Assembly (NCBI GenBank): GCA_001899305.1
Contig: MKWL01000001.1
Coordinates: 496,001-560,000 of the forward strand
Origin: Thiobacillus sp. 0-1251
Lineage (GTDB): Bacteria > Pseudomonadota > Gammaproteobacteria > Burkholderiales > Thiobacillaceae
Direction of reading: 5' to 3'
Length of the DNA: 64,000 nt
Shown here: positions 4,801 through 14,000 of the stretch, piece after piece
How positions within the stretch are numbered: position 1 is the stretch's first letter
Layout: the number at the start of each line of letters is the position of its first letter
Notes under the pieces: generated by a model
Seen by the model: the letters and a program-made list of their open reading frames with translations, nothing else
Told to the model about the DNA's origin: nothing
Database searches by the model: none
Made by a program: the position numbers and the translations under genes

Positions 4801-6615
4801 TTAGATGGAGACCTTGGCCAGCCGCGCCTGGCGGCCATAGGTGAGATTGACCATGGCGCGCGACACGGTGACGGCGCTGAACATGGAAGTGAGGATGCCC
4901 AGACACAGGACGACCGCAAAGCCGCGCACCGGGCCGGAGCCCAGCCAGAACAGGGCGACGCCGGCGATCAGTGTGGTGAGGTTGGAGTCGAGAATGGTGC
5001 CCCAGGCGCGGTCGTAGCCGGCGTGGATCGCAGCCTGTGGCGTGGCGCCGTTGCGTAGTTCCTCACGGATGCGCTCGTTGATCAGCACGTTGGCGTCGAT
5101 CGCCATGCCGAGCGTGAGTGCGATGCCGGCCAGGCCGGGCAGGGTCAGCGTGGCCTGCAGCATCGACAGCAGTGCGACCAGGAAGATGCCGTTGATGGCG
5201 AGCGCAATCGACGAGAAGAGACCGAAAACGCGATAGTAGAACACCATGAACAGCGTGACGGCCAGGAAGCCCCACAGGTTGGAGCGGAAGCCCTTGCTGA
5301 TGTTTTCCGCACCCATGCTGGGTCCGACGGTGCGCTCTTCCACGATCTGCATCGGGGCAGCCAGCGCGCCGGCGCGCAGCAGCAGGGCGATGTCCGATGC
5401 CTCTTGGGCGGATTCCATGCCGGTGATCTGCACCCGGCCGCCGCCGATTTCCTCGCGGATGACTGGCGCGGTGATGGCCTCGGCCACGCCCTTTTCGATC
5501 AGCAGGATGGCCATGCGCTTGCCGACGTTTTCGCGGGTCACGTCCTTGAAGATGCGGGCGCCTTTGCCGTCCAGGTTGACGTGGACAGCCGCCTGGCCGC
5601 TGGTGCTTTCAAAGCCGGGCGAAGCATCGGTGATCGAATCGCCGGTCAACACCACGTCCTTCTTCACGGCGATTTTCCCGCCATCGCGGCTGGTTACGAT
5701 GTCGTCGCCGTACGGCGTCTGGCCCTGCTGAATGGCCGTCGGGTCGGCCTGTTCGTCGACCATGCGGATTTCCAGCGTGGCGGTGCGGCCCAGGATCTCC
5801 TTCGCCTTGGCGGTGTCCTGCACGCCAGGCAATTGCACTACGACGCGGCTGTCCCCCTGCTGCTGAATGACGGGTTCGGCCACGCCGAGTTCGTTGACGC
5901 GGTTTCTGAGCGTGGTGATGTTTTGCTGCAGGGAGCGTTCTTTCTCCTTGGTTTCGGCTTCCGGCTTCAGGCGTGCGGTCAGGGTAAAGCCTTCGGCCTC
6001 ATCTTCCGGGGTGAACACCAGATCGGGGAATGCCGTGCCCAGCTTGTTTATGGCGGCATCACGCTGGTCGCGCGTGGCGAAATGCACGGTCACGGCACTG
6101 CCTTCGCGACTGATGCGCCCGTAGCGGATCTTGTCGCTGCGAAGTTCGGAGCGGAAATCATTCTGGTAACGGTTGGCCGCTTTTTCTAGTGCAGCTTTCA
6201 TGTCGACCTCGAGCAGGAAGTGCACGCCGCCGCGCAAGTCCAGGCCGAGATACATCGGCAGCGCGTGAATCGACGAGAGCCAGGCGGGCGAGGCCGACAC
6301 CAGATTGAGCGCGACGGTATAGCGTCCGCCCAGGCTGTTTTGCAGCACGTCCTTGGCCTTGATCTGCTCGTCAGTCGTGCCTAATCGCACCTTGATGCTG
6401 TTTCCTGACAGTTCCACGCCCTGATAGCCCAGGTTGGCCGCTTTCAGCGAGGACTCCACCTGGCCCAGCAGGGTGGAGTCGACCTTTTCAGTGGTGCGCA
6501 CGGGGGAAATCTGCACCGCAGGCACTTCGCCAAAAAAATTGGGCAGGGTGTAAAGGAAGGAGACCACCAGCGTGATGCCGATGAGCACATATTTCCAGAG
6601 CGGGAAGCGGTTCAT
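4801..6615 (-). CDS. secD: Protein translocase subunit SecD
   Basis: This 604-residue partner of SecF has an N-terminal membrane anchor (about 8-25), a large periplasmic P1 region opening with LGLDLRGGVHFLLEVD, and a C-terminal six-helix RND-type membrane domain. The membrane domain carries GIALTLGMAIDANVLINERIREE, whose conserved Asp is needed for proton flow. Order and strand follow the classic yajC-secD-secF operon. The 77 bases before it include short GGGTCAGG-like repeats rather than a clear promoter. Confidence 0.96.
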   Translation of the reverse strand: MNRFPLWKYVLIGITLVVSFLYTLPNFFGEVPAVQISPVRTTEKVDSTLLGQVESSLKAANLGYQGVELSGNSIKVRLGTTDEQIKAKDVLQNSLGGRYTVALNLVSASPAWLSSIHALPMYLGLDLRGGVHFLLEVDMKAALEKAANRYQNDFRSELRSDKIRYGRISREGSAVTVHFATRDQRDAAINKLGTAFPDLVFTPEDEAEGFTLTARLKPEAETKEKERSLQQNITTLRNRVNELGVAEPVIQQQGDSRVVVQLPGVQDTAKAKEILGRTATLEIRMVDEQADPTAIQQGQTPYGDDIVTSRDGGKIAVKKDVVLTGDSITDASPGFESTSGQAAVHVNLDGKGARIFKDVTRENVGKRMAILLIEKGVAEAITAPVIREEIGGGRVQITGMESAQEASDIALLLRAGALAAPMQIVEERTVGPSMGAENISKGFRSNLWGFLAVTLFMVFYYRVFGLFSSIALAINGIFLVALLSMLQATLTLPGLAGIALTLGMAIDANVLINERIREELRNGATPQAAIHAGYDRAWGTILDSNLTTLIAGVALFWLGSGPVRGFAVVLCLGILTSMFSAVTVSRAMVNLTYGRQARLAKVSI

Positions 6616-6692
6616 GTCAGAAGGGGTCAGGGGTCAGGATTCAGGGACAGGGGACGGGGAGCCGGCGTTGCGCCTTCCCCGCCCCCTCGGTT

Positions 6693-7010
6693 TTACAGGC
6701 CTTTGATCGTGCCCTTGGGCAGCAGCGTCTGCACCGACTGTTTCTGCACGTGGGTAATGACGCCGTCGGCAATTTCCAGCGACACGAACTGGTCGCCGAT
6801 CTTGACGATCTTGCCAGCCTGGCCGCTGGCAGTGACGACTTCGTCGCCCTTGGCCAGCTCCGACAGCATTTTCTTCTGTTCCTTGGCGCGCTTCATCTGC
6901 GGGCGGATCAGCATGAACCAGAACAGGATGAAGATGATGATGAGCGGAAGAAACTGCTCAAACCCCGGGTTGGCTGCGGCGGCGGCTTGTGCGTGGGCGA
7001 GTGAAATCAT
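6693..7010 (-). CDS. yajC: Sec translocon accessory protein YajC
   Basis: This 105-residue single-pass inner-membrane protein co-purifies with SecDF. A membrane helix (FLPLIIIFILFWFMLIRPQM) is followed by the family signature KRAKEQKKMLSELAKGDEVVT and a small soluble domain. It precedes secD by 77 bases. A TAGAAT box at about 7057-7062 on the minus strand, at the end of tgt, could provide a promoter, with a leader of roughly 40 bases. Confidence 0.94.
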   Translation of the reverse strand: MISLAHAQAAAAANPGFEQFLPLIIIFILFWFMLIRPQMKRAKEQKKMLSELAKGDEVVTASGQAGKIVKIGDQFVSLEIADGVITHVQKQSVQTLLPKGTIKGL

Positions 7011-7056
7011 GGGTAAAAGCTCCGAATCAAGGCAGTTCAGTTAAAACCACGGGATT

Positions 7057-9182
<2,126 letters not shown>

Positions 9183-9277: not shown

Positions 9278-9364
9278 GCCGGGATGGCGGAATCGGTAGA
9301 CGCAGCGGATTCAAAATCCGCCGGTGGTAACACTGTGGGGGTTCGAGTCCCCCTCCCGGCACCA
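9278..9364 (+). tRNA. tRNA-Leu (anticodon CAA)
   Basis: This is a complete 87-base class II tRNA with encoded CCA. The acceptor GCCGGGA pairs with TCCCGGC, the D-loop region contains AATCGGTAGAC, and the anticodon stem GCGGA/TCCGC encloses TTCAAAA, giving anticodon CAA (reads UUG). A long variable arm follows, then GTTCGAGTC in the T-arm. The 54 bases from the anticodon loop to the 3' end are repeated exactly at 10808-10861, which marks this gene as an integration site. Confidence 0.97.
9311..9364 (+). repeat. Left 54-bp direct repeat (att site inside tRNA-Leu)
   Basis: Bases 9311-9364, from the anticodon loop to the CCA end of tRNA-Leu, match 10808-10861 base for base. Identity stops at 9310 (T versus C) and after the CCA. 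A repeat of the tRNA 3' half beginning at the anticodon loop is what site-specific tyrosine recombinases leave when an element enters a tRNA gene. Confidence 0.93.
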
Positions 9365-9432
9365 ATGACTTCTACCATTCTTTCCGTCTTGGCGCCTGTA
9401 GATGCAGCGGGGACATTGGCAGGAATCTGTTG

Positions 9433-10581
9433 CTAGTGGAATGGTTTCTCAAGCGCATCCAAGACGGGTGCGCAAACGTAAAAACGTCCCCACTGGCGCC
9501 CGCTGACCTCCTTGAGTATCTTCTTTTCCTCCAGCACGCTGATGGCGGCTTTCGCTGTGGGATGGGTCTTGTTGAGCACCTTGGCTCCGCGGCCTATGGT
9601 CATGTACGGATTGACGAAAAGTTCGTCGATCAGGCCAAGGGCATTCGGCTTGTCTCGTAATTGGCTTCGGTATTGCTCCCGCAGGCGGTGTAGTTCCTTT
9701 GACTGCTGTCCGGCCTCGGTGGCGATTTCTGTCACGCCTTGGAGAAAAAATCGTATCCAAGGTACCCAGTCGCCGTGTGTACGTACGCGCTGTAACAAAT
9801 CGTAATAGTCCCCCTTGTGGGCGTCGATGAACGCGGAGAGGTAAAGCAAGGGCTCTGACAATCGCCCTCTCTGCATGAGGAAGAAGGTAATCAGCAGACG
9901 CCCGACACGTCCATTCCCATCGAGAAAAGGGTGGATGGTTTCAAACTGGACGTGCATCATCGCGCACTGGATTAGGTCGGGTATCACGTCTTGTGAATGC
10001 AGAAAATTTTCCCAGTCCCCCAGGCAGTCCATCAACACTTCAACCGGCGGTGGGACAAATGCCGCAGTCATCGGTGTGCTCCCGGCTGGCCCAATCCAGT
10101 TCTGTGATCGCCGAAATTCGCCTGGGGTCGCTTTTTCTCCCCGAACGCCGTCCATGAGCTCGGCGTGAATTTCCCGGATGAGTCTGAGCGAGAGCGGTAG
10201 TGTTTCCAGTCGCTGGACGCCAAACTCCAACGCTCGGACGTAGTTGCGAACTTCCTTGACGTCGTCGCTGGGCGCTCTTGCTTGGCCGTCTTCAATCTCA
10301 TCGATCAGGAGGTCAGAAAGGCTGGCCTTTGTGCCTTCGATGCGGGACGATAGAACCGCCTCCCGCTTGATGTAGGGCGAAATTAACAGGTGAGGGTTCG
10401 GTAACTGGCCGCCAAGGCCTGATAGTTCCGAGAGTGCCGCGTCGGCTTTTGAGAGCGCCAGGGCGAGCGGCATATCGAAGTTGATAGGCGGTGGCAACGG
10501 GTTCGGCACAAAAGCCAGGTAGCCCTGAGGGGTATCTACCAGTCGGCCGCTTGTCGTGTCAGCAAAGTCTTTTCGATTCAT
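9433..10581 (-). CDS. Fic family protein with N-terminal inhibitory motif and C-terminal winged-helix region
   Basis: Fic proteins usually transfer AMP from ATP to hydroxyl side chains of target proteins. From ATG 10581 (MNRKDF) the protein has 382 residues. An N-terminal Fic_N-like region contains the inhibitory-helix motif (S/T)xxxE(G/N) as S78...E82-G83. The Fic core carries the catalytic H217-PFLDGNGRVGR loop, complete with the base His and the anion-binding residues. The C-terminal 80 or so residues (NPYMTIGRGAKVLNKTHPTA and beyond) look like a winged helix-turn-helix. Inhibitory helix and active site share one chain, so no separate antitoxin is needed. The start at 10614 is less likely because it lengthens the N-terminus beyond the family norm. 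Target and role are unknown; autoregulation is suggested by the upstream palindromes. Confidence 0.9.
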   Translation of the reverse strand: MNRKDFADTTSGRLVDTPQGYLAFVPNPLPPPINFDMPLALALSKADAALSELSGLGGQLPNPHLLISPYIKREAVLSSRIEGTKASLSDLLIDEIEDGQARAPSDDVKEVRNYVRALEFGVQRLETLPLSLRLIREIHAELMDGVRGEKATPGEFRRSQNWIGPAGSTPMTAAFVPPPVEVLMDCLGDWENFLHSQDVIPDLIQCAMMHVQFETIHPFLDGNGRVGRLLITFFLMQRGRLSEPLLYLSAFIDAHKGDYYDLLQRVRTHGDWVPWIRFFLQGVTEIATEAGQQSKELHRLREQYRSQLRDKPNALGLIDELFVNPYMTIGRGAKVLNKTHPTAKAAISVLEEKKILKEVSGRQWGRFYVCAPVLDALEKPFH

Positions 10582-10607
10582 TGGATTAGAGACGAGAGCC
10601 CAGAATA

Positions 10608-10675
10608 TTTTCAAACCATTGTAGGCTTTGAAAGAAATTGGTCAATTTTTTTCAAAGCCATTTGGGGTTTGAAAA
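10608..10675. promoter_or_regulatory. Two tandem 27-bp palindromic operators upstream of fic
   Basis: Two imperfect palindromes, 10608-10634 and 10649-10675, share the plan TTTTCAAA-n-CC ... GG-n-TTTGAAA. Their centres are about 41 bp apart, close to four helical turns, so dimers on both would lie on the same DNA face. They start 27 bases upstream of the fic start codon, where a repressor would block transcription. The likely binder is the winged-helix region of the Fic protein itself, but that is inference. Confidence 0.6.
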
Positions 10676-10744
10676 TTCTTTGTTCCGACAACTTCTACAA
10701 TTTGTGAGGAGCCAACGTAATGACGCGGTTTTCCGCAGGCTGAG

Positions 10745-10771
10745 AAAATGCCCTTTGTAGAAGGGCATTTT
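10745..10771. terminator. Bidirectional intrinsic terminator inside the mini-island
   Basis: An 11-bp perfect stem, AAAATGCCCTT (10745-10755) with AAGGGCATTTT (10761-10771), encloses a 5-base loop. The A and T runs at the ends allow termination in either direction. It would insulate the fic promoter from the right junction. Confidence 0.7.
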
Positions 10772-10807
10772 GCTAGTGACTTGTTTTAACTAGCTTCCCG
10801 CCAAGCC

Positions 10808-10861
10808 TCAAAATCCGCCGGTGGTAACACTGTGGGGGTTCGAGTCCCCCTCCCGGCACCA
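10808..10861 (+). repeat. Right 54-bp direct repeat (orphan tRNA-Leu 3' half)
   Basis: This is an exact copy of 9311-9364, lacking the 5' half of the tRNA, so it cannot make a functional tRNA. It marks the far end of the element inserted in tRNA-Leu. Confidence 0.93.
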
Positions 10862-11260
10862 GTAGAGACGTGGGTTTTCTGAGTCGCCCGCGTTTCCGGG
10901 GTTCTGAACCTCGCTTTCCAGACGCGGTCGAGACCCCATCAACTCCTACCGGCGTCACGCATTTCCAACGTCAAAACGACATGGGCGTGCCGGGCCCATA
11001 TCCAGGCGAACGTCAGTTTCTCGGCAATCAGCCAACATCCGCTTTGGCCAGGAAGCGGGGGCTATGCCTATTCCCCGTCAAGTCGTTCTCACAGGCCGAC
11101 CCATGGATCGTGGATTGCGCTTGTTTGGGGTGCGGTCGATCGACTCGTAAGCATCATGTAAGTAAACACAGATTAGGCTGGACATTGGCGGGATACCTTG
11201 TTTCCAGGGGTGTTCTATAAGAGCAGCGGTGGCTGAATTTGACAAATTGACGAGGATCCG
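10862..11260. other. 399-bp region without a supported gene
   Basis: Open frames exist on both strands (for example plus 10870-11220) but have no ribosome-binding site and no recognisable protein features. The segment may be residual island DNA between the right att copy and the oxygenase gene. The promoter of the next gene should lie near its end; GAGG at 11251-11254 is the ribosome-binding site for the start at 11261. Confidence 0.5.
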
Positions 11261-11923
11261 ATGAAGGAAAACAGCATGGAAACTGCACAAAGGCCGTTTC
11301 TGACTAGTTTGCCGGGAGCGGAGATCCGCGAATTTCCTTACAGGCACTGGCTACTGGACCACTGCCTGCCGGAAGACGTCATCGATGCCATCATCAATCT
11401 ACCCATCGCGCCCGTCCACATCGGAAATACGAAGGGAAAACGGGATACGCACAATAAGACACGGGTTCTGTTCAGCGAGGCCAATCGCAAGCAGTACAAG
11501 GTGATGGACGAATTGGCCCGGGCATTCCAGTTCCAGGAGACGGTGGACGCGCTGAAAGAGGCCACGGGTGCCCTCCTTTCCGACACGTCACTGCGTATCG
11601 AGTATTGTCAGGACACGGATGGATTCTGGCTGGAACCGCATACCGATATAGGCGTAAAGCGGTTCACCCTGCTGATCTATCTCAACAGGGAGCCGGAAGG
11701 AGCGGATTGGGGGACGGACATCTACGCTGACCCCCACACGCACGTGGGACGTGCCCCGGCGGGCTTCAATTCGGGTTTCATTTTCGTTCCAAGCGACAAG
11801 ACCTGGCATGGTTTCGAGAAGCGTCCAATCAATGGTGTGCGGAAATCCCTGATCATCAACTACGTCACTCAGGATTGGCGCAGCCGCGAGGAATTGTCCT
11901 TCCCTGATGTGGTGGTGCGGTAA
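11261..11923 (+). CDS. 2-oxoglutarate/Fe(II)-dependent oxygenase-like protein
   Basis: The 220-residue protein has the double-stranded beta-helix metal site of 2OG oxygenases: H127-x-D129 in EPHTDIG, distal H183 in TWHGFEKR, and R194 in NGVRKSLIINYV to bind the 2-oxoglutarate carboxylate. Members of this group hydroxylate prolines, other side chains or small molecules; the substrate here is unknown. There is no signal peptide. ATG 11261 is preceded by GAGG; ATG 11276 is an alternative. An ELM1-family gene begins 11 bases downstream, and the exopolysaccharide locus follows convergently, so a role in modifying a surface glycan or its machinery is possible but unproven. Confidence 0.75.
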   Translation: MKENSMETAQRPFLTSLPGAEIREFPYRHWLLDHCLPEDVIDAIINLPIAPVHIGNTKGKRDTHNKTRVLFSEANRKQYKVMDELARAFQFQETVDALKEATGALLSDTSLRIEYCQDTDGFWLEPHTDIGVKRFTLLIYLNREPEGADWGTDIYADPHTHVGRAPAGFNSGFIFVPSDKTWHGFEKRPINGVRKSLIINYVTQDWRSREELSFPDVVVR

Positions 11924-11934
11924 GTCCGCAGACA

Positions 11935-12921
11935 ATGAATGGCGCGCGCACCCTCTGCTGGGCGATGACAACCGGGGAAGCGGGTATGGTGAGCCAGGCG
12001 AATGGCCTGGCCCAGGCGCTTGGATTGCCTTTTGTGGCGAAAGCTGTCCAGCCTGGAATTCCTTGGCGCTGGCTGCCTGGCCATTGGGCGGCCCGGCTGG
12101 GTGTGTTGTCGAACCTGAAACCGGAGGACGGCATCTCGCCTCCATGGCCGGATATCCTCATCACCTGCGGACGGCGTTCCGTTGCCGTCGCCCTTGCGAT
12201 CAAGCGGGCGAGCGGTGGTCGAACTTTCACGGTACACATCCAAGACCCACGCGTGCCGCCCGGCTATTTCGACATGGTCGTACCGCCGGAACATGACGGA
12301 GTCGTCGGCGAGAACGTCTTCCCGACATCAGGTGCGTTACACAGGCTGACGAGGGAAGGGCTGTCTCAAGCCGCGGAGCATTTTCGTGACCGTTTCTCAT
12401 CGGTCAGAAGGCCCCTCGTGGCGGTGCTCATCGGGGGGCAATCCAAGGCCTACGACCTCACCGCCAGTCGCATGGAGAAACTGGCTGGGCAACTGCTGGA
12501 ACTCACCACGCGCCACGGCGCAGGTCTTGTGGTGACAACTTCGCGACGCACCGGAAAAGAGAACGAAGCCATCTTGCGGCGTATTCTCGCCGATACCGAT
12601 GCCCAGATCTGGGACGGGACCGGGGAGAACCCTTACGTTGGCATGCTAGGCAGTGCGGACTACATCGTCGTCACCGAAGATTCCGCCTCCATGGTTTCCG
12701 AGGCTTGCTTCACAGGCAAGCCGGTTTATGTGGCCAGGATGGAAGGGGGCTCCAAGCGCTTCGATGCGATGCATCGACAATTCCTGGCATCCGGCTATAC
12801 GCGAATGTTTGAAGGGAATCTGGAGCATTGGGATTCCCAGCCTCTCGACGAAACCCGACGCATTGCAGCGATCGTACGAGAACGCACGGCCAGTCACGAC
12901 TGCAAGGGTTCGAATCGATAA
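11935..12921 (+). CDS. ELM1/DUF1022 family protein (GT-B-like)
   Basis: This 328-residue protein matches the family named after plant mitochondrial fission factor ELM1 (DUF1022). Bacterial members are predicted to adopt a GT-B glycosyltransferase-like fold. Typical features are the N-terminal WAMTTGEAGMVSQANGLAQ, the DILITCGRRSVAVALAIK segment, HIQDPRVPP, VAVLIGGQSKAYDL, and the C-terminal nucleotide-site-like TEDSASMVSEACFTGKPVYV. No signal peptide or membrane helix is seen. It is co-oriented with and close to the oxygenase gene, and ends 23 bases from the convergent GH10 gene. A role in envelope glycan synthesis is plausible, not shown. Confidence 0.8.
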   Translation: MNGARTLCWAMTTGEAGMVSQANGLAQALGLPFVAKAVQPGIPWRWLPGHWAARLGVLSNLKPEDGISPPWPDILITCGRRSVAVALAIKRASGGRTFTVHIQDPRVPPGYFDMVVPPEHDGVVGENVFPTSGALHRLTREGLSQAAEHFRDRFSSVRRPLVAVLIGGQSKAYDLTASRMEKLAGQLLELTTRHGAGLVVTTSRRTGKENEAILRRILADTDAQIWDGTGENPYVGMLGSADYIVVTEDSASMVSEACFTGKPVYVARMEGGSKRFDAMHRQFLASGYTRMFEGNLEHWDSQPLDETRRIAAIVRERTASHDCKGSNR

Positions 12922-12944
12922 TTGTCCAGGGACCGCCCGTATGG

Positions 12945-14000
12945 CTAAGATCTGCCGGCCTCGCCTCGTCCCACGCGGCGCAGCAGGTGCCGAATGCTAT
13001 AGTACGCCGGCTTGGCACGACCCTCTGCATCGAACAGCAACGCCGCACCGCGACCGGGAAAGAATTCCGGTATCCACGAATAACGATCGGTCGCCCCCCA
13101 GGTGGAGAAGCTGCGGCACTGCGGCACCGCCAGGCAGGCCTGCAGCATGGCGCCATACAGCACAGCCTGTTTCCTGAGCGTCACCCGGCTTGCCGGCAGC
13201 TGGAGCATCACGTCCATTTCAGTGATGTCGGTCTGCAGCCCGAGCGCGGCCAAGCGCTTCATGTTGAGGCGCACGTCCTCGGAGCGTGGCGCGTCGTTCA
13301 GGCTCACGTGCATTTGCAGGCCCACGGCGTCGATCGGGACGCGGCGCATGCGCAGGTCGGCCACCAGCGTGTAGATGCCGTCCGATTTGGCGCCGGCGCC
13401 TTCGCCGCCGTAGTCGTTGTAGCGCAGGCGCGCCTGCGGGTCGGCCGCGTGCGCCCAGCGGAATGCCAGGGCCAAATAGTCCGGGCCGATGCCACGCGAC
13501 CAGAAGGTCTCGCGCGGCGTGCCGTCTTCGCCGACCGCTTCGGCCGCTACGTCCCATGAGGCCACGCGTCCGCGATAGCGGGCGACGACGGTCTGGATGT
13601 GCTCGCGCAGGATGGCCTTCAGTTCGTCGGAGCTGAAATGGCCCTGCGTCAGCCAGTCCGGCAGTTGCTGGTCCCACACCAGCACATGGCCGTTCACCTG
13701 CATGGCGTGCGCTTCGGCGAATGCGACGAGGGCATCCGCCTGTGTGAAGTCGAAGCGGCCGCGTTCGGGCTGGATGACGGAGAATTTCATCGCGTTCTCC
13801 GGCGTGACGAGGTCGAACTCGCGCGCCAGTAGTTTGGAATAGGCGGCGTCCGTGCCCAGGGCCTCGACGTTCACGGCGGTGCCGAAGCGGATCCCGGCCG
13901 TGTGCGCCAGGTTGCGCATGCCGTCGGCGGCAAGGGCGAAGGTGGCCGTGGTGCACGCGACGGCGGCCGTGATCGCCATGAGGGTGATACGCCAGGGCAT
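12945..14000 (-). CDS. GH10-family glycoside hydrolase (xylanase-like), exported, with altered -1 subsite
   Basis: From ATG 14000 the protein has 351 residues, with a signal peptide (about 1-25) and one GH10 barrel. Family landmarks: ENAMKF (68-73), GHVLVWDQQLPDW (104-116), SWDVAAEA with acid/base E154, GLQMH (Q229, H231), ITEMD with nucleophile E261, and STWGATDRYSW (W301). Two positions differ from typical GH10: the His of LVWH is Asp110 and the Asn before the acid/base Glu (WDVxNE) is Ala153. Both normally contact the -1 sugar, so the substrate may not be xylan. It is the last gene of the exopolysaccharide operon, 1 base after the deacetylase stop. It may trim the polymer like the hydrolase half of PgaB. 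Confidence 0.85.
   Translation of the reverse strand: MPWRITLMAITAAVACTTATFALAADGMRNLAHTAGIRFGTAVNVEALGTDAAYSKLLAREFDLVTPENAMKFSVIQPERGRFDFTQADALVAFAEAHAMQVNGHVLVWDQQLPDWLTQGHFSSDELKAILREHIQTVVARYRGRVASWDVAAEAVGEDGTPRETFWSRGIGPDYLALAFRWAHAADPQARLRYNDYGGEGAGAKSDGIYTLVADLRMRRVPIDAVGLQMHVSLNDAPRSEDVRLNMKRLAALGLQTDITEMDVMLQLPASRVTLRKQAVLYGAMLQACLAVPQCRSFSTWGATDRYSWIPEFFPGRGAALLFDAEGRAKPAYYSIRHLLRRVGRGEAGRS

What the first reader, a model, noticed from the sequence alone, without database searches (positions are those of the whole stretch)
9278..10861. Integrase-less 1.5-kb mini-island with a lone Fic gene at tRNA-Leu(CAA)
A 54-bp exact direct repeat begins at the anticodon loop of an intact tRNA-Leu and recurs 1,497 bp later without the tRNA 5' half. 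The interval holds only a self-inhibited Fic protein, operators and a terminator. Islands at tRNA 3' ends normally carry an integrase. A minimal cassette with a single putative AMPylating protein and two operator sites may be a satellite element mobilised in trans, or a trimmed remnant.
Basis: partly seen in the sequence, partly recalled or inferred. Interest (0 to 1): 0.7.

Follow-up and report, generated by a model that had tools for sequence, protein, structure and literature searches.

The report
Integrase-less toxin remnants at tRNA genes
The short tRNA-flanked segment with one Fic gene is most likely what remains of a larger mobile element whose integrase was deleted, and relatives show that such elements have shrunk several times to their two ends plus one toxin or phage-defence module.

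Summary
Observation confirmed: intact tRNA-Leu(CAA), a 54-bp exact repeat 1,497 bp apart, one Fic gene between. A Thiobacillus relative (G049) has a 7.6-kb element between the same repeats: intact tyrosine integrase, P2-GPA-type replication protein, regulators, and the same Fic (94%) as the gene nearest attR. Two elements of the same build, integrases 61% identical, sit at tRNA-Met in other families; nearest attR they carry YefM/YoeB or a Panacea-domain protein. Integrase-less minis recur: 7 modules in 6 of 55 Thiobacillus loci, all with Fic or ParE; others elsewhere carry ParE, Phd-PIN, or an 80%-identical Fic at tRNA-Lys, tRNA-Met or a gene 3' end. Different integrase leftovers survive in different minis, so the integrase was probably lost more than once. 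Minis keep CTTCTACAA sites near their ends; the same motif, paired, lies beside 4 of 6 of the closest intact integrases, so these are probably integrase arm sites. The window's copy has a shortened left arm and no cognate integrase was found in its assembly: probably immobile now. Fic is under purifying selection. Mobilisation in trans of better-preserved minis is not excluded (about 0.2).

The parts
9278..9364 (+). tRNA-Leu(CAA), target gene; its 3' part is the left att copy
   Evidence: ARAGORN
9311..9364 (+). left copy of the 54-bp att repeat
9368..9377 (+). arm-like site L1 (ACTTCTACCA, one mismatch), 5 bp from the core instead of about 40 as in relatives
9433..10581 (-). Fic gene, SoFic type, 382 aa
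10607..10676 (.). palindrome upstream of Fic, probable operator (inferred)
   Evidence: inverted repeat; conserved across genera
10691..10702 (+). arm-like site R1 (ACTTCTACAATT, exact)
10808..10861 (+). right copy of the 54-bp att repeat (attR)

Best explanation
The interval is an integrase-deleted remnant (a cis-mobilisable element, CIME, in published terms) of a family of about 7.6-kb integrative elements, probably phage satellites. The family integrates at the 3' end of tRNA genes with a tyrosine integrase, carries a P2-GPA-type replication protein, and holds a toxin or phage-defence module beside attR. SHOWN: an integrase-bearing element with the same cargo at the same site in a relative; the same build at tRNA-Met in two other families; recurrent end motifs and their partial match to the integrase clade; integrase leftovers of different length in different minis; purifying selection on Fic; no cognate integrase found in the own assembly. 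INFERRED: the end sites are bound by the integrase; internal deletions removed integrase, replication and regulator genes more than once; the cargo is kept because it is a useful or hard-to-lose toxin-type module (Fic acting as a self-inhibited AMPylator in phage defence); the window's copy is now locked in place.
For: Parent at the same site, G049 (L043): tRNA part 1-78, integrase ORF ending at 141 (PF00589), Phage_GPA 3.5e-82, two HTH proteins above and one below the Pfam cut-off, Fic 6291-7442 (94%), att 7666-7714. Same build at tRNA-Met(CAT): G117 (52-bp repeat, GPA, YefM/YoeB) and G241 (46-bp repeat, GPA, SocA_Panacea). Integrase leftovers: G014 69 aa at 93% plus a 21-aa piece, shorter stretches in G040 and G024; the ParE minis join the left arm to G049 position about 5,708 or 5,737. 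End sites: R2 49-54 bp from the right end in 8 of 8 Thiobacillus minis examined; L1 at 39-41 bp in G024, G040, G037, G012 and G049; none of 200 shuffles reached the count in 7 of 8 minis. L1 window 0.97 conserved against 0.71 over the left-arm alignment of 10. Paired motif beside 4 of 6 integrases with at least 50% identity and 0 of 8 below. Toxin-type cargo in 7 of 7 integrase-less att-flanked modules of the genus. Fic G000-G049: 94% amino-acid against 52% fourfold-site identity. Flanking repeats in 9 of 12 loci of this Fic clade against 0 of 10 more distant homologues with short flanks and none in L108.
Against: The window's left side matches the parent over only 30 bp at 80%, so its own derivation is the least certain. 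The Fic minis end their left leftover close to the Fic stop (overlap 3 bp in G024, then 14, 36 and 52 bp in G040, window, G014), closer than deletions that only had to spare Fic need to be. The same lone Fic at several kinds of target is also what a small mobile cassette would give. The end motif was chosen after seeing the sequences, so the shuffle counts overstate it; no arm site was found in L105 or L107, and 2 of 6 close integrases lack the pair within 260 bp (L164 has one about 1.4 kb further). No clean empty site was found.
Confidence: 0.72

Rival explanations
1. The minis are non-autonomous mobile units in their own right: ends plus one gene, excised and integrated by integrases supplied in trans by related satellites or prophages.
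For: End sites are kept at similar positions in minis with different cargo; the same Fic clade lies alone between repeats at tRNA-Leu, tRNA-Lys, tRNA-Met and another gene end; modules stand in tandem in G014; integrases of the family occur in 22 of 399 genomes of the order sample. The GIsul2 integrase mobilises a unit through att sites (PMC9376610, abstract).
Against: Left junctions and integrase leftovers differ between minis, which points to separate deletions rather than one travelling small form. An intact G049-type integrase is in 1 of 56 genus genomes and was not found in the own assembly. The window's left arm is shortened and several attR copies carry small deletions.
Confidence: 0.2
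2. The Fic gene is an ordinary chromosomal gene that happens to lie beside a partial tRNA duplication unrelated to integration.
For: The repeat is confined to tRNA sequence, and partial tRNA copies occur for other reasons (recalled).
Against: Integrase-bearing element with the same Fic between the same repeats; integrase leftovers in relatives; repeats at other target genes.
Confidence: 0.03
3. Several unrelated integrative elements independently captured toxin modules at a tRNA hotspot, and the shared end motif is a coincidence or a regulatory sequence.
For: Other integrases use the site: a different one in G041 and P4-like starts in G019, G044 and G002 judged by eye. R1 and R2 lie next to the Fic operator, so a regulatory role is possible.
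Against: The motif also bounds ParE modules without Fic and lies paired beside intact integrases; left arms are alignable across Fic and ParE minis.
Confidence: 0.05

Closest known systems
CIME (cis-mobilisable element), described for decayed ICE/IME (passages of PMC5704250)
   Same: Integration genes lost, attL and attR kept; tandem arrangement at one site, as in G014.
   Different: The parent looks like a GPA-bearing phage satellite rather than an ICE or IME; remnants are about 0.8-1.5 kb with one toxin-type module; probable arm sites are kept.
SoFic / Sofic anti-phage Fic protein (PMC12249575: abstract and section 2.1 read)
   Same: PADLOC SoFic profile over nearly its whole length; SoFic chains are the nearest PDB sequences.
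   Different: NCBIfam SoFic equivalog cut-off not reached (178.5 of 550 bits). EcSofic has a 47-aa antitoxin gene (AS1) downstream; here only 68 bp lie between the Fic stop and the tRNA.
PICMI and P4-like satellites (PMC10803314: abstract and passages)
   Same: Small integrative element with integrase and replication gene; defence genes in a slot near one end.
   Different: PICMIs integrate at fis and encode AlpA and a primase; the G049 family uses tRNA genes and a GPA-type protein. P4 features were not compared.
GIsul2 / CR2-sul2 unit (PMC9376610: abstract)
   Same: Units bounded by att sites that an integrase can recombine.
   Different: Mobility was shown there by experiment; here it is only possible.

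Membership tests
CIME | attL and attR retained | tested here: met
   54-bp exact repeat
CIME | integration genes lost relative to a related complete element | tested here: met
   G049 complete element; leftovers of its integrase in G014, G024, G040; none found in the own assembly
CIME | parent is an ICE or IME with transfer genes | tested here: inconclusive
   Six G049 proteins scanned against Pfam and PHROGs: integrase, GPA, regulators, no conjugation family reported
CIME | mobilised in cis after accretion of a functional element | not testable with these tools
   Tandem modules seen in G014; transfer cannot be observed
Phage satellite (the parent) | own integrase and replication gene, no structural genes | tested here: met
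   G049. G117 and G241: integrase, GPA and some ORFs scanned, not every ORF. One weak tail-assembly hit (phrog_1668, about 2e-4) on the HTH-like protein in G049 and G117 is taken as spurious
Phage satellite (the parent) | packaged by a helper phage | not testable with these tools
   no packaging data
SoFic anti-phage Fic | match to the defence-database profile over most of its length | tested here: met
   PDLC03963 SoFic, 9e-120, profile 5-359 of 361
SoFic anti-phage Fic | NCBIfam ProtAdlyltaseSoFic equivalog cut-off | tested here: not met
   178.5 bits against 550: same family, not that equivalog
SoFic anti-phage Fic | protects against phage | not testable with these tools
   no assay
PICMI satellite | integration at fis with AlpA and primase | tested here: not met
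   Target is tRNA-Leu; no AlpA or primase among the six G049 proteins scanned

The most novel reading that the evidence does not exclude
A cassette-like system outside integrons: one-gene units (two integrase-recognised ends plus a toxin or defence gene) that stack at a tRNA 3' end and spread between genera and target genes, using integrases supplied in trans by related satellites and prophages.
Probability: 0.2. Interest if true: 0.8.

Novelty: new variant of a known kind. Interest (0 to 1): 0.52.

Why it matters
Lone defence or toxin genes beside tRNAs are easily left without a history. Here a repeated route is visible: a small integrative element loses everything but its ends and its toxin-type cargo. 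That makes two questions testable: whether toxin cargo outlasts its carrier because losing it is costly, and whether end-preserving remnants can be mobilised by the next related integrase. The link between integrase clade and end motif, if it holds, gives a way to find such remnants by sequence.

Tried and rejected
Chance repeat: rejected. Fic beside an unrelated tRNA duplication: rejected because of G049. Helper integrase in the own assembly: none of the G049 type at E<=1e-20; PF00589 has 18 matches there, not examined one by one. Clean empty site: looked for and not found, because the DNA after the tRNA is variable; G001 and G055 begin with sequence that resembles a decayed left arm by eye, but the BLAST gave no such match. 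Recent transfer judged from fourfold sites: inconclusive; Fic is somewhat more similar than core genes for G000-G040 and less for G000-G049, and its G+C (54% for the interval) differs from its surroundings. Fic in IMG/VR: none found; the integrase gave one 49% relative, L156, not informative. Fic in the phage and plasmid collections: only matches below 60% identity. Distant-homologue control: 11 loci scanned; L109 (79%) is the same place as L102 and belongs to the clade, which leaves 10; L110 lies at a contig end and could hardly show a repeat. Window scan with ACTTCTACAATT and up to 2 mismatches: 2 hits, both in the island, 0.8 expected, 18 of 100 shuffles reach it, so weak on its own. An earlier thought that every Fic mini joins exactly at the Fic stop codon was dropped on recount. 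Papers: nine searches, of which some were aimed at SoFic and PICMI; in their listings I saw no description of this integrase-less single-toxin form or of the GPA element family. Four papers were opened in part, none read whole; the library lacks most subscription journals. No structure was predicted.

Full report
WHAT IS THERE. The window holds an intact tRNA-Leu(CAA) at 9278-9364 and a 54-bp exact repeat of its 3' part at 10808-10861. Between them lies one plausible gene, a 382-aa Fic protein on the minus strand, with Fic_N and Fic domains, a strong PADLOC SoFic match and SoFic structures as the nearest PDB sequences; the NCBIfam SoFic equivalog cut-off is not reached.

RELATIVES AT THE SAME SITE. 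Of 56 genus genomes including the own one, 5 encode a Fic at 94% identity or more (own, G014, G024, G040, G049), and all five lie at this tRNA or its att copies. I fetched 54 stretches from 52 genomes beside the window; G025, G027 and G032 were not fetched because no queA-tRNA match was listed for them. Ten of the 55 loci are shorter than 5 kb, so counts are lower bounds. Seven loci hold two or more att copies: G000, G014, G024, G012, G037, G052 and G049. Only G049 has an intact integrase of this family; fragments are in G009, G014 and G021. In G041 and G009 an att copy lies on a contig stretch without the tRNA: in G041 beside a different integrase, in G009 about 1 kb from a broken G049-type integrase.

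THE PARENT. Between tRNA and attR in G049 lie, on the minus strand, a tyrosine integrase ending 62 bp from the tRNA, an HTH-like protein below the Pfam cut-off, a Phage_GPA replication protein, two further HTH proteins, a small protein without Pfam match, and Fic. G117 and G241, in other families, have integrases 61% identical, Phage_GPA, repressor-like proteins, repeats of 52 and 46 bp at tRNA-Met(CAT), and next to attR YefM/YoeB (G117) or a SocA/Panacea-domain protein (G241). A weak tail-assembly hit on the HTH-like protein is the only structural hint. In G201 a relative of the integrase (52%) lies at tRNA-Leu(CAA), and a copy of the tRNA 3' part without the 5' part lies about 40 kb away, which fits a prophage; its content was not examined.

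THE MINIS. Seven integrase-less modules lie in six Thiobacillus loci: Fic in G000, G024 and G014; ParE toxin with a probable antitoxin in G014 (second module), G052, G037 and G012 (Pfam ParE_toxin for G052, for G012 and G014; the G052 antitoxin has no Pfam match). In G037 the ParE match covers 85 of 99 residues and no ORF of 60 aa or more was listed for it, so that toxin may be broken. G040 has Fic beside the tRNA but no attR. Outside the genus: a ParE module in G340 with a decayed attR and a 1,351-bp module with Phd/YefM and PIN_3 in G093. G340 was found with a ParE-bearing query; G093 came up by its att copy; the list is capped. In other genera the Fic clade (79-82%) lies between repeats in L101 (tRNA-Lys CTT), L105 and L106 (tRNA-Met), L104 (the contig starts in a tRNA end; tRNA-Met judged by eye) and L107 (25 bp at a gene end reading DPCMVCTVH, taken from recall as a NiFe hydrogenase large subunit); no repeat in L102 and L103. 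So 9 of 12 loci of the clade have repeats; in G014 the two copies counted are right copies, as the tRNA is off the contig. Of 10 more distant homologues none has a repeat of 14 bp or more in flanks of about 1.5 kb (L110 hardly testable), nor has L108 (44%) in longer flanks.

THE ENDS. With one mismatch allowed, a CTTCTACAA site lies 39-41 bp after the left core in G024, G040, G037, G012 and G049, at 33 in G052 and at 5 in the window; G014's first module starts inside the arm and its second has no left hit. A second site lies 112-117 bp before the right end in G000, G040, G014 (first), G037 and G049, and one in the opposite sense 49-54 bp before it in all eight Thiobacillus minis and G049 (for G040, without attR, I set the end by alignment). 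None of 200 shuffles reached the observed number in 7 of the 8 minis, in G049 and in L104; 3 did for G014's second module, 1 for L101, 6 for L106; L105 and L107 have no site. The motif was picked from these sequences, so the counts are generous. Among 14 integrase loci of the family examined, of 25 matches listed, the motif occurs as a pair about 20 bp apart just beyond the integrase stop in L162, L163, L165 and L166, not in L164 and L167, and not in the eight below 50% identity; three of these (L171, L174, L175) show a paired TTCCGCAA motif by eye. I take the sites as integrase arm sites; binding was not tested.

HOW IT FORMED. G014 keeps 69 aa of the integrase end and a 21-aa piece; G040 and G024 keep shorter stretches; the ParE minis join the left arm to a point near 5,708 (G014) or 5,737 (G037, G052) of G049. 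These different joins suggest several deletions, though later erosion of one older deletion cannot be excluded. Fic itself is conserved: 94% amino-acid against 52% fourfold-site identity between G000 and G049.

CAN IT MOVE. No G049-type integrase and no further att copy were found in the own assembly, and its left arm site is displaced and mismatched. I judge the window's copy immobile at present. For better-preserved minis trans-mobilisation is possible; the GIsul2 abstract reports integrase-driven movement of an att-bounded unit.

AGAINST KNOWN KINDS. It meets the tested part of the CIME definition, with a satellite-like rather than conjugative parent. It is not a PICMI. The Fic is of SoFic type but has no room for the AS1 gene reported downstream of EcSofic.

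Noticed in passing
window 10862-12973: About 2.1 kb after attR, with ORFs that look like a 2OG-Fe(II) oxygenase (11261-11923) and an ELM1-like protein (11935-12921; names by eye), had no match in the other fetched loci; homology resumes near 12970. It may be a further insertion without repeats.
   Followed up: partly
G007, G026, G037, G038, G040, G042: queA and tRNA-Leu, adjacent in most relatives, are separated by about 0.2 to 6.5 kb of other DNA on the 5' side of the tRNA.
   Followed up: no
L047 (G041): After an att copy beside a different integrase lies a left arm of the satellite type and then a Fic of another subfamily (40% identical), perhaps an older module with an independent Fic.
   Followed up: partly
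L059 (G009): The match to the tRNA at queA stops in the anticodon region; an integrase-like ORF and a 77% tRNA-Leu copy follow.
   Followed up: no
attR of G024, G049, G012, G037 and of L101, L106: These attR copies carry deletions of 1 to 3 bases in the tRNA 3' part relative to attL; in G024, G049 and G012 the same G is missing.
   Followed up: no
window 9311-9364 and 10808-10861: Both att copies carry a tRNA variant (CCGGTGG...ACACTG) that the tRNAs of G055, G023 and G040 share, while most of the genus reads CCGCTGG...ACAGTG, as if the last integration came from a close relative.
   Followed up: partly
L171, L174, L175: More distant integrases have a paired TTCCGCAA motif beside them in place of CTTCTACAA (by eye), as if arm motif and integrase clade change together.
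   Followed up: partly
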